Source of the DNA: Methylibium petroleiphilum PM1
Lineage (GTDB): Bacteria; Pseudomonadota; Gammaproteobacteria; Burkholderiales; Burkholderiaceae_C
DNA length: 64,000 nucleotides
Direction: 5' to 3'
Assembly: GCF_000015725.1 (NCBI RefSeq)
Contig: NC_008825.1
Span: 2,976,001-3,040,000, forward strand
Each line of letters starts with the position of its first letter. The stretch's first letter is position 1. The notes under the pieces were generated by a model. That model ran no database searches and was not told the DNA's origin. It was given only the letters and a program-made list of their open reading frames with translations. Below are positions 2,663 through 14,242 of this stretch, in pieces. Both the position numbers and the translations under genes were made by a program.

Positions 2663-4105
2663 TCATTCCGTCAGCGGAAGCTCCAGCGTGAACTCGGCGC
2701 CCCCGTCCGGGTGGTTGCGCGCACTCAGCGTGCCACCGTGCTGCTCGACGATGCCGTAGCTGATCGACAGACCCAGGCCCGTGCCCTTGCCCACCGGCTT
2801 GGTGGTGAAGAAGGGGTCGAAGATGCGCGTCAGGTGCTCGGACGGAATGCCGGGTCCGTTGTCGCGCAGGCGCAGGCGGACCCGCGAGCCGTCCTGCTCG
2901 GTATCGATCCACAGCACCGGGCTCTCGCCAGCACGGCTGGCCGCGGCGTCGCAGGCGTTCTGCAGCAGGTTCATCAGCACCTGCTGCAGCTGGCCCGCAC
3001 TGCCGGTCACCGTGCAGGGAGGGCCCGGCGTCCATTTCATTTCGAAGCTGGGCGCGGTGCCCTTGCTGACCCAATGGATCGCCCGTTCGATCACGTCGTT
3101 CAGCAGCACCGGCACACGTGCCTCCGGGTCCATCGCCGAGAAGCGCTTCAGACCGTTGACGATGTCGGCGGTGCGTTGCGCGCCCTCGAGCGTGCCCTCG
3201 ATCAGCGACGGCAGGTCATTCAGCAGGTGCTCGATGCGCAGCTTGCTGCGCATCTCGGCGAGCCGGGCCGGCGGCTCGTCCGCATGCACGGCCTCCAGGT
3301 AGGTTCGCAGCCGGTCGCTGTAGCGGCTGAGCGCATGGACGTTGCCGAGCACGAAGCTGATCGGGTTGTTCAGCTCGTGCGCCACGCCGGCCACCAGCCG
3401 GCCCAGCGAGGCCATCTTCTCGGAGTGGAGCAGCTGCTGCTGCGCGCGCTTGAGCGCCTCGTGCGCTGTGCGCAGCTCGTGGAAGGCCCGCTTGATCTCG
3501 GCCGTAGGGCGGCCGACGAACACCGTACCGACGCGCCGGCCGTTCGGCGCGATGCGCGGCGTGCAGTTGGCGTCGACCGGCACGCTCTGCCCCTGCGCAT
3601 CGAGCAGGTTCAATTCGACGGCCTCGCCTTGCCGCGACGGCGTCGCGTTGGCCAGCACCTGGCGCACGCTTTCGCCGCTGGCCTCGTCGGCCAGCAGGTC
3701 GTTGAACAGCATGCCGCGCAGCGTGGCATCGCTGCGACCGACCAGCTCGCGCAGGGCGGCATTGGTCTCTTCGATCACGCCGTGTTCGTCGCACACCAGC
3801 AGCACATCCGACATGGCGGACAACACGCTGAAGATGAACTGCTGGGATTGCTCGAGCTCGGTGTTCTTCTGCTCGAGCTCGATCTCGTCGAGCACCAGCT
3901 GTGAATACACCTCGTCCATCTTCTGGATGACGTCCATCCAGGTCGATTCGTCGACGCCCTCGATCTGGCCGGGTTGCCCCGCGTCGGTGGCTGCCGGCGG
4001 GGCACTCAGCGAGGGACGGGGAGGCAGGGAGCGGGCCATCGAGACAGGGGCGCGAGCGAATGAATATCCATTTGAGCACGATGCATGCCCAGCGACGCTC
4101 CCCAT
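2663..4105 (-). CDS. hoxJ: HoxJ/HupT-type H2-signalling sensor histidine kinase
   Basis: A soluble PAS histidine kinase of about 480 residues without membrane segments. Order: Pro/Ala-rich leader, a [16 protein letters not shown] coiled region (57-90), a PAS domain (about 90-200), the H-box [11 protein letters not shown] with His243, then N-box, DNGPGI, FFTTK and GTGLGLS ATP-binding motifs, all intact. The MDEVY...SMSDVL-type start of the PAS is typical of HoxJ/HupT, the partner of the H2-sensing hydrogenase HoxBC and the regulator HoxA, both encoded 8.7-14 kb upstream. It begins only 22 bp after the stop of a TonB receptor gene, so the two are probably co-transcribed. The start is uncertain: ATG 4105 or ATG 4039, neither with a good ribosome site. 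Confidence 0.8.
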
Positions 4106-4127
4106 GTCCGCACCGCTGGCCGATGGG

Positions 4128-12749: not shown

Positions 12750-12784
12750 GCGAGCCGGTCGGTGAAGGTGGAGAGGAGAATCGG

Positions 12785-14242
12785 TCAATGCACCGTGCAC
12801 ACCATGCACGGATCGAACGAGCGCACGATGTGCTGCACCGCCACCGGCGTCAGTTCGCCCTCTTGCACCGGCGCGCCCTCGAGCGCCTGCTCCAGCGCGC
12901 CGGGCGTGCCGGCGGCGTCTCGCGGCGAGAAGTTCCAGGTGGTGGGCGCGACGATCTGGTAGTTGGCGATCTGGCCGCGGATGGCGACGATCCAGTGGCC
13001 CAGGCTGCCACGCGCGGCCTCGCTCAGGCCCACGCCGACGCCCTCGGTGAAATGCGGGCTCGGCACGCAGTAGGACTCGCCGCTCTGCAACTGCTGCAAC
13101 CAGCGCTCCATCATCGGCACCACGCGCGCCAGTTCGATCAGGCGCGCCAGCACGCGGGTGTAGACGGTGCCGCCGTGGCGCGCCACCGCGTCGCGCACCA
13201 GCGGCTGCGCCGATGCCAGCTGGCGGGCGATGGCACCTGTCTCGACCACCTCGCCGGCGAGCCGTGGCGCCTTGTTCCACGTGTAGGCGTCGGGCTTGTC
13301 GGCGTCGGGCAGCGTCAGGCCGTCGAGCGGATGGCGCGGGGCGGCGCTGTCGGCCAGCCAGGCATGCGTCGCGTCCTCTCGTATCGCCGCCTCGTCGAGA
13401 CGCGACAGCACCGCGCGCTGCGCATGCCACACGCCGCCGCCGAGCTCGAAGCCGCCGTCCGGCTGCGGGTAGGCGCCGTAGCTGAGGTAGCGCCCGGGGC
13501 CAGGGCCGAGACGCTCCAAGGCAGCGTCCTTGACCATGCTCAGGAACAACCGGAAGTCGCCGCGCCACGGGTCCTGCGCATGCCAGGCCCACAGCTCGGC
13601 TTCGCTGGCGATCGAGCTCACCTTCTCCAGCGGTGCGGCGAACAGCTGGCGCTCGAGGAAGGCCCGGAACTCGCGCACGCGCGACAGCAGGCGCACACGC
13701 TCGGCTGCCTCGATCGGCCGCGTGGAGCCGCCCGGCTCGATGCTCTGCGTGTGAGGCCACTTGCCGGCCAGGGTGCCGAGCAGCGTGAACCAGCGCTGGC
13801 GCGCCGCGATGGCCGCGCGCGTCTGTTCGCCGGTCTGCGGGGCGAAGCGGCGTTCGGCTTCGGCATGCCAGGCCCGCGACGCATAGACCGGACGAGTGAA
13901 GTCCGGCATGAAGAAGAGGTAGAAGTGCGTCAGGTGATCGGCCAGGTTCTCGGTGGCGAGGATCACATTGGTGGCGTGCTGGCCGTTGGGCGGCATCTCC
14001 AGGCCGCCCAGGTCGGCCAGGGCGCGCGCCGACGCCACCGACTGCGAGACCGAGCAGATGCCGCAGATGCGCGGCACGTAGACCAGTGCATCGTGCGGGT
14101 TCTTGCCGCGCAGGATCTGCTCGAAGCCGCGGTACATCGGCGCGTTGACGCGCGCCGACGTCACCCGGCCGTCGGCGATGTCGAGCGTGACTTCGAGATC
14201 GCCTTCGACGCGGTTGAACGGGCCGACGAGCAGGCGGGTCAT
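12785..14242 (-). CDS. hoxC: Regulatory (H2-sensing) [NiFe] hydrogenase large subunit
   Basis: HoxC/HupV, 485 residues, carries the Ni-Fe site of the cytoplasmic H2 sensor. Cys60 and Cys63 are in RICGICSVSQ and the second pair is in DPCMVCTVH at the extreme C-terminus. The protein stops at that His, so no protease-cleaved extension exists, as is typical of sensor hydrogenases. Ile62 and Phe110 occupy the positions that narrow the gas channel of the R. eutropha sensor and make it insensitive to O2. ATG at 14242 overlaps the hoxB stop (ATGA). It should pass the H2 signal through HoxB to HoxJ. Confidence 0.95.
   Translation of the reverse strand: MTRLLVGPFNRVEGDLEVTLDIADGRVTSARVNAPMYRGFEQILRGKNPHDALVYVPRICGICSVSQSVASARALADLGGLEMPPNGQHATNVILATENLADHLTHFYLFFMPDFTRPVYASRAWHAEAERRFAPQTGEQTRAAIAARQRWFTLLGTLAGKWPHTQSIEPGGSTRPIEAAERVRLLSRVREFRAFLERQLFAAPLEKVSSIASEAELWAWHAQDPWRGDFRLFLSMVKDAALERLGPGPGRYLSYGAYPQPDGGFELGGGVWHAQRAVLSRLDEAAIREDATHAWLADSAAPRHPLDGLTLPDADKPDAYTWNKAPRLAGEVVETGAIARQLASAQPLVRDAVARHGGTVYTRVLARLIELARVVPMMERWLQQLQSGESYCVPSPHFTEGVGVGLSEAARGSLGHWIVAIRGQIANYQIVAPTTWNFSPRDAAGTPGALEQALEGAPVQEGELTPVAVQHIVRSFDPCMVCTVH

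What the first reader, a model, noticed from the sequence alone, without database searches (positions are those of the whole stretch)
2663..14242. Nickel-import module spliced between the H2 sensor genes and their kinase
In R. eutropha the order is hoxA-hoxB-hoxC-hoxJ-hoxN. Here nikR, a TonB receptor, nikK-L-M-Q-O and a second TonB receptor lie between hoxC and hoxJ, and no hoxN permease is seen. The locus thus holds outer-membrane uptake, inner-membrane uptake, a nickel regulator, an H2 sensor and the enzyme in one block. Gene identities are from motifs; the displacement is by comparison with known gene order.
Basis: partly seen in the sequence, partly recalled or inferred. Interest (0 to 1): 0.75.

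Follow-up and report, generated by a model that had tools for sequence, protein, structure and literature searches.

The report
Nickel-import operon carrying H2-sensor kinase
In this bacterium the genes that import nickel sit between the parts of a hydrogen sensor, so that the sensor's kinase gene appears to be the last gene of a nickel-controlled operon; related bacteria show similar arrangements, which suggests that hydrogen sensing may be tied to nickel supply.

Summary
The gene order is real: on the minus strand, hoxA-hoxB-hoxC-nikR-(TonB receptor 1)-nikK-L-M-Q-O-(TonB receptor 2)-hoxJ. The genome searches found no HoxN orthologue and no second HoxJ.

The order is not unique. nikR directly followed by hoxJ recurs in many Rhodocyclales-type genomes. 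Nickel-import genes between nikR and hoxJ also occur in Methylibium sp. Root1272, Methyloversatilis, Piscinibacter (Ideonella) sakaiensis and one groundwater Burkholderiales MAG.

New here is the regulatory anatomy. A strong terminator follows nikR. NikR-type sites (GTATGA-N15-TCATAC) precede both receptor genes, one exact and one with a single mismatch; the genome holds three such sites. hoxJ starts 88 nt (or 22 nt) after receptor 2, with no terminator found between. hoxJ therefore looks removed from the hox transcript and placed last in a nickel-repressed one. HoxJ keeps the glycine whose loss disables HoxJ in C. necator H16.

Best reading: nickel starvation raises import and, with it, HoxJ, which holds HoxA off until nickel is available. 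The anatomy is shown; transcription, NikR binding and the dose effect are inferred. Whether insertion happened once or several times is unresolved.

The parts
15255..16703 (-). hoxA, sigma-54 response regulator of H2 sensing
   Evidence: Response_reg, Sigma54_activat, HTH_8; 75% to H16 HoxA
14239..15258 (-). hoxB, regulatory hydrogenase small subunit, no signal peptide seen, C-terminal tail as in H16
   Evidence: 76% to H16 HoxB, alignment A6
12785..14242 (-). hoxC, regulatory hydrogenase large subunit; ends at CTVH, no cleavable extension
   Evidence: 70% to H16 HoxC, alignment A5; PF00374
12279..12749 (-). nikR, nickel-responsive repressor; His/Cys residues of the metal site (recalled) invariant in 8 aligned sequences, the window's included
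   Evidence: NF002815 over cut-off; PF08753; alignment A1
12231..12253 (-). intrinsic terminator after nikR (10-pair stem, T run)
   Evidence: only terminator-like site found in 1500-16800, where shuffles give 6.0 on average; fold z -3.7; conserved in Methylibium Root1272
12029..12055 (.). NikR-type operator GTATGA-N15-TCATAC, exact, about 50 bp before TonB receptor 1
   Evidence: 0 of 5000 shuffles of the intergenic region
9901..11979 (-). TonB-dependent receptor 1
   Evidence: Plug and barrel domains; 67% to the receptor before nikKLMQO in Accumulibacter L208
9172..9888 (-). nikK (DUF4198)
   Evidence: PF10670
8653..9150 (-). nikL
   Evidence: NF058648 E 2.6e-7, below curated cut-off; synteny
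7989..8666 (-). nikM, ECF substrate-binding membrane protein
   Evidence: PF01891 185 bits
7378..7998 (-). nikQ, ECF transmembrane component (divergent)
   Evidence: no family hit; 52-70% to ORFs between nikM and nikO in relatives
6600..7385 (-). nikO, ECF ATPase
   Evidence: PF00005; ECF ATPase and cbiO models, below their NCBIfam cut-offs
6378..6404 (.). NikR-type operator, 1 mismatch, about 80 bp before TonB receptor 2
   Evidence: 1 of 5000 shuffles of the intergenic region reaches it
4128..6296 (-). TonB-dependent receptor 2 (group of the receptor near hoxN on pHG1)
   Evidence: Plug and barrel; 90% in Root1272, whose copy is 53% to the H16 receptor
2663..4039 (-). hoxJ, histidine kinase of the H2 sensor (458 aa; the longer start at 4105 is not conserved in the sibling)
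   Evidence: 67% to H16 Hox[11 protein letters not shown] box intact; start compared
29790..30380 (-). hupE, second nickel permease candidate in the same hydrogenase cluster
   Evidence: PF04955 169 bits

Best explanation
A NikR-controlled nickel-import module has come to lie between nikR and hoxJ, so that hoxJ is now the distal gene of a nickel-repressed transcription unit (receptor 2-hoxJ, perhaps also receptor 1-nikKLMQO-receptor 2-hoxJ), and is cut off from hoxABC by a terminator after nikR. With nickel plentiful, Ni-NikR represses import and hoxJ together. Under nickel shortage both rise: two outer-membrane receptors and the ECF importer bring nickel in, while extra HoxJ kinase keeps HoxA phosphorylated and inactive, so that nickel enzymes are not made before they can be loaded. 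Shown: gene identities, order, operator-like sites, terminator, intact HoxJ. Inferred: transcript structure, NikR binding, HoxJ dose effect. My probabilities: hoxJ under NikR control 0.6; the full loop 0.35.
For: Sites: exact at 12029-12055 and one mismatch at 6378-6404; three such places in 4.64 Mb, reversed control 0. Operator identity: 20 of 68 NikR-bearing family genomes hold an exact N15 site against 1 of 59 NikR-lacking ones picked from 331 (Fisher p 1.6e-5), and 18 of the 21 exact places lie within 320 bp of the nikR domain hit (coordinates). The one terminator-like site in 1500-16800 is right after nikR, conserved in the sibling. None found in the receptor 2-hoxJ gap. In the 7 related loci with import genes between nikR and hoxJ, a site with at most 2 mismatches lies within 500 bp after nikR in 5 (Root1272 and 4 Methyloversatilis, the latter at N16); in the 24 loci with hoxJ directly after nikR, in 0. 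HoxJ keeps the G-box glycine. In E. coli, HoxJ dose titrates HoxA output (PMC10073562, passages).
Against: No expression or binding data. The 88-nt gap before hoxJ, or the 3' end of receptor 2, could hold a hoxJ promoter. Of the 5 family genomes with nikR after hoxC, 3 (G456, G518, G597) have no N15 site with 0-1 mismatch anywhere, and the exact site of I. sakaiensis (G449) heads hoxN-receptor elsewhere, not the hox locus. At their loci Root1272 and G518 have 2-mismatch sites and I. sakaiensis a 3-mismatch one, a level that other loci also reach. In L173 hoxN lies between nikR and hoxJ with no recognisable site. The four Methyloversatilis loci are one genus. The exbB-operon site is not conserved in Root1272. 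Nickel shortage would presumably already silence H2 sensing through unfilled HoxBC, so extra HoxJ may be redundant.
Confidence: 0.6

Rival explanations
1. Incidental neighbourhood. The nikR-hoxJ gap is simply a place where nickel genes gather (functional clustering or horizontal transfer as one nickel/hydrogen package), and hoxJ is expressed from its own promoter at an unchanged level.
For: nikR-receptor cassettes also sit where no hox gene was recognised in the stretch (L158, L159, L168); in several Rhodocyclales-type loci nikR-hoxJ is itself separated from hoxC by other ORFs.
Against: Two separate NikR-type sites, and a terminator conserved in the sibling that isolates hoxJ from hoxABC. In the inverted case L083 hoxJ went with the import genes and again lies downstream of them on their strand. 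For the other interposed loci that order is part of how I defined them.
Confidence: 0.3
2. The two TonB receptors import something other than nickel (for example a siderophore), and the site before receptor 2 belongs to another regulator.
For: Best NCBIfam models are siderophore receptors, all below cut-off; TonB receptors are hard to assign by sequence.
Against: NikR-type sites directly upstream; receptor 2 relatives follow nikR or hoxN, often with such sites, in other genomes.
Confidence: 0.08
3. Dose compensation: being in the import operon lowers HoxJ when nickel is plentiful, which makes the hydrogenases constitutive rather than H2-gated under nickel sufficiency.
For: Same anatomy; in C. 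[quoted passage not shown]
Against: HoxJ here is intact and the sensor subunits are conserved, so gating is presumably still used.
Confidence: 0.2

Closest known systems
hoxABCJ-hoxN locus of C. necator H16 (pHG1)
   Same: H2-sensing HoxBC-HoxJ-HoxA system, next to a nickel transporter gene
   Different: hoxJ directly follows hoxC; no nikR found in the 39 kb searched; permease is HoxN; H16 HoxJ has serine at the G-box position
hoxC-nikR-hoxJ-[site]-hoxN-TonB receptor loci (for example L198, a Rhodocyclaceae MAG, and L103)
   Same: nikR and nickel import beside the H2 sensor; receptor of the same group
   Different: hoxJ follows nikR directly with no recognisable site between; import genes lie after hoxJ
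Piscinibacter (Ideonella) sakaiensis 201-F6 locus (L178/L059)
   Same: hoxC-nikR-TonB receptor-nikKLMQO-hoxJ on one strand
   Different: distant receptor (24-34% to the window's two), no second receptor, only a 3-mismatch site
Methyloversatilis and Methylibium Root1272 loci
   Same: hoxC-nikR-[NikR-type site]-receptor 2-hoxJ
   Different: no nikKLMQO and no receptor 1 found in between
NikKMLQO ECF nickel importers (PMC2667541, passages)
   Same: component set K, L, M, Q, O
   Different: location inside an H2-sensor locus

Membership tests
Regulatory (H2-sensing) [NiFe] hydrogenase, HoxBC type | large subunit without C-terminal cleavage extension | tested here: met
   HoxC ends at CTVH while HoxG of the same cluster runs on
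Regulatory (H2-sensing) [NiFe] hydrogenase, HoxBC type | small subunit without Tat signal, with the C-terminal tail of H16 HoxB | tested here: met
   alignment A6; by eye, no signal predictor was run; the tail's role in HoxJ contact is recalled
Regulatory (H2-sensing) [NiFe] hydrogenase, HoxBC type | bulky gas-channel residues Ile62 and Phe110 of HoxC (recalled) | tested here: met
   RICGICSVS and HFYLFF in alignment A5
HoxJ/HupT kinase | PAS plus HisKA plus HATPase, high identity to HoxJ over full length, intact G box | tested here: met
NikR repressor | ribbon-helix-helix plus NikR_C with conserved His/Cys site | tested here: met
NikR repressor | cognate operator near target genes | tested here: met
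   spacing 15 here, 16 in E. coli (PMC7055735, passages)
NikR repressor | nickel-dependent DNA binding | not testable with these tools
   needs gel shift or footprint
NikKMLQO ECF nickel importer | all five components contiguous | tested here: met
   NikQ only by synteny and tblastn
NikKMLQO ECF nickel importer | nickel rather than cobalt specificity | not testable with these tools
   inferred from NikR-type sites and hydrogenase context
HoxN/NiCoT permease | full-length NicO-family protein in the genome | tested here: not met
   only a 29-bit UreH-like protein

The most novel reading that the evidence does not exclude
In several betaproteobacterial lineages the H2-sensor kinase gene has been captured as the last gene of a NikR-repressed nickel-import operon, which makes HoxJ an integrator of two inputs: H2 through HoxBC, and nickel status through its own dose. 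This would be nickel-gated hydrogen sensing by operon capture.
Probability: 0.35. Interest if true: 0.7.

Novelty: new variant of a known kind. Interest (0 to 1): 0.5.

Why it matters
It gives a directly testable answer to how a cell avoids switching on nickel enzymes without nickel: put the inhibitory kinase of the H2 sensor into the nickel-starvation regulon. It also shows that nikR-hoxJ is a recurring neighbourhood, kept in some genomes even where hoxC stands apart, which the C. necator model (no nikR found in its locus, disabled HoxJ) cannot show. The loci offer natural contrasts: hoxJ before or after a NikR-type site.

Tried and rejected
hoxN elsewhere in the genome: only a UreH-like protein. 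A second HoxJ: none. E. coli spacing (N16) in the window: no match with up to 3 mismatches; spacing 15 fits. Mismatch counts of 3 are uninformative: N15 sites with up to 3 mismatches in the window number 7 against 5.3 expected, so only 0-1 mismatch sites were relied on for the window. Sites with one mismatch also arise by chance in relatives: by my count (0-1 mismatch), 70 places against 22 for the reversed pattern in the 68 NikR-bearing genomes, and 31 against 17 in the 59 others. Single origin of the interposed state: not decided. The HoxC tree puts Methylibium with L038, where no nikR was found; AU p is 0.059 for HoxC and 0.21 for receptor 2; the NikR tree is poorly resolved. The receptor 2 tree places Methylibium with stand-alone nikR-receptor cassettes, which would suggest separate insertion but is not significant. 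Direction of the Root1272 difference (deletion there or insertion here of receptor 1-nikKLMQO) could not be settled. Receptor 1 has no match at E 1e-80 in Root1272 and in only 6 others of 399 family genomes (44-48% identity in five, 35% in one); its closest matches seen are two Rhodocyclales-type loci (66-67%). The exbB-tonB site as a conserved regulon member: unproven, since the sibling lacks it. A sigma-54 promoter before hoxK: the scan gave no convincing site. Literature: no paper in the held library had 'regulatory hydrogenase' with nikR and hoxJ, nor 4 of the 5 terms; the rows shown (20 of 25 listed; 12 of 99 listed; 10 of 24 listed) showed nothing on this arrangement in title or abstract start; a Dechloromonas genome paper (PMC2907700, passages) holds neither nikR nor hoxJ. 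I read no paper whole. Subscription papers, among them the PM1 genome paper and the 2006 nickel/cobalt transporter survey (both recalled), were not looked up; RegPrecise may hold a NikR regulon for PM1 (recalled, not checked).

Full report
What is there. The window is stretch 2,976,001-3,040,000 of a 4,044,195-base contig in a 4,643,639-base genome of two contigs. Those sizes match, from memory, Methylibium petroleiphilum PM1; the nearest relative found is Methylibium sp. Root1272. On the minus strand, in the direction of transcription, lie hoxX, hoxA, hoxB, hoxC, nikR, a TonB receptor, nikK, nikL, nikM, nikQ, nikO, a second TonB receptor and hoxJ. NikR is over its curated cut-off, NikM and NikK are clear, NikL is weak, and NikQ has no family hit and is assigned by position and by relatives. 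The reference order hoxA-B-C-J-N was read from pHG1 of C. necator H16.

A HupE/UreJ nickel permease gene lies at 29790-30380 beside hoxG, so the cluster has two candidate inner-membrane nickel routes. No HoxN orthologue was found: the one NicO-family hit is a short UreH-like protein. No second HoxJ was found; the next kinase scores 189 bits against 1070.

Regulatory anatomy. The only terminator-like site that the scan found in 1500-16800 follows nikR at 12231-12253. Shuffles give 6.0 such sites on average, so the number says nothing; the case rests on the site itself, a 10-pair stem with a T run, fold z -3.7, conserved in Root1272. The sequence GTATGA-N15-TCATAC stands exactly at 12029-12055, about 50 bp before receptor 1, and with one mismatch at 6378-6404, about 80 bp before receptor 2. 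Shuffling each intergenic region 5000 times gave 0 and 1 equal or better. In the whole genome three places reach one mismatch or fewer, with none for the reversed control. The third heads an exbB-exbD-exbD-tonB operon (the tonB gene has no Pfam hit and is named by position and proline-rich make-up), but Root1272 lacks that site. E. coli NikR binds the same half-sites with spacing 16 (PMC7055735, passages).

That this is the NikR operator of the family was tested. Of the 68 family genomes with NikR_C 20 hold an exact N15 site, at 21 places; 18 of the 21 lie within 320 bp of the nikR domain hit. Of 59 genomes without NikR_C, 1 holds one (Fisher p 1.6e-5). These 59 were picked by me (46 with hoxC, 13 others) out of 331. 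At up to one mismatch the contrast is weaker (46 of 68 against 22 of 59), because such sites also arise by chance. Against the reading: of the five family genomes with nikR just after hoxC, only the window's and I. sakaiensis (G449) have any site with 0-1 mismatch, and that of G449 heads a hoxN-receptor pair on another contig.

hoxJ starts at 4039 (458 aa) or 4105 (480 aa); 4039 is likelier because the longer start is not conserved in Root1272. The gap to receptor 2 is 88 or 22 nt, and no terminator was found in it. Thus hoxJ lies after two NikR-type sites and, relative to hoxABC, behind a terminator.

HoxJ and the sensor look functional. HoxJ is 67% identical to the H16 protein and has [10 protein letters not shown] where H16 has GKGTGLSLSI. 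In H16 the phosphorylating activity is knocked out and S422G restores it; HoxA is active when not phosphorylated, HoxJ inactivates it without H2, and HoxJ dose titrates HoxA output in E. coli (PMC10073562, passages). HoxC lacks a cleavable tail and keeps Ile62 and Phe110; HoxB keeps the C-terminal tail (the meaning of these residues is recalled).

Relatives. In the family sample 67 of 399 genomes have a match to HoxC at 1e-100 and in the order sample 40 of 399 at 1e-60. I fetched the 66 other family loci and the 14 best of the 38 further order loci (several cut by contig ends). nikR follows hoxC in G456, G449, G518 and G597 of the family, besides the window, and in 5 of the 14 order loci; the G597 contig ends there and its hoxC match stops at residue 414. 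In 24 of the 80 hoxJ is the next recognised gene after nikR on the same strand; in 7 of 80 import genes lie between: Root1272 and four Methyloversatilis (receptor 2), I. sakaiensis (another receptor plus nikKLMQO), and a groundwater MAG, L173 (hoxN); the other 49 fit neither. In family genome G518 the module is inverted, and hoxJ is again downstream of it, behind a 2-mismatch site. In six Rhodocyclales-type loci nikR-hoxJ stands 2.6-7.9 kb from hoxC with other ORFs, not family-searched, between.

Sites follow the arrangement. Within 500 bp after nikR, a site with at most 2 mismatches (spacing 14-17) occurs in 0 of the 24 nikR-hoxJ loci and in 5 of the 7 interposed ones; I. sakaiensis has 3 mismatches and L173 has 5. 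Counting the window as an eighth gives 6 of 8 (p 3e-5), but four of these are one genus and the loci are not independent.

History. The HoxC tree (109 rows, quick method) scatters the interposed state in a clade where most rows have no nikR recognised; the fewest changes among three states is 11, with loci whose hoxJ was not found and the inverted G518 counted as interposed, one row left uncounted, and gain not told from loss. Whether Methylibium and Methyloversatilis share one event is open (AU p 0.059 and 0.21). Receptor 2 also occurs in nikR-receptor cassettes in stretches with no hox gene recognised, a plausible source. The receptor 1-nikKLMQO block is closest, among loci seen, to blocks in Accumulibacter 66-26 and a Rhodocyclaceae MAG, where it follows hoxJ.

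Mechanism. I think hoxJ has been moved from the hox transcript into a NikR-repressed one. Nickel shortage would raise import and HoxJ together and hold HoxA off. The anatomy is shown; transcripts, binding and the dose effect are inferred. An incidental neighbourhood remains the main rival. The finding is a new variant of known parts with a clear test.

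Noticed in passing
29790-30380 (-): HupE/UreJ nickel permease gene between hoxG and the gene in the hoxZ position (the latter not family-searched), a second candidate inner-membrane nickel route in the cluster.
   Followed up: yes
34959-36968 (-): Bufferin-type metallophore cluster (BufA2 precursor and BufB MNIO maturase over cut-off, HvfC-like protein below cut-off) a short way upstream of hoxK.
   Followed up: no
18498-19028 (-): 176-aa protein with no NCBIfam or Pfam hit between hypE and hoxX; a hypothetical protein sits in the same slot in Acidovorax plasmid pEP1.
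   Followed up: no
L120:9168-11862 (own genome, C1 about 1.885 Mb): exbB-exbD-exbD-tonB operon headed by a one-mismatch NikR-type site, absent in the sibling species.
   Followed up: partly
L200, L208, L212, L221, L231, L233: nikR-hoxJ pair kept together but 2.6-7.9 kb from hoxC in Rhodocyclales-type genomes.
   Followed up: partly
L169, L174, L175, L179: Methyloversatilis-type loci with hoxC, nikR and receptor 2 but no hoxJ found in the stretch held; L169 and L179 (and L171, which has hoxJ) carry an extra gene of about 470 aa between hoxC and nikR.
   Followed up: no
Methyloversatilis L166, L169, L172: Exact NikR-type site with spacing 16, as in E. coli, where the window has 15.
   Followed up: no
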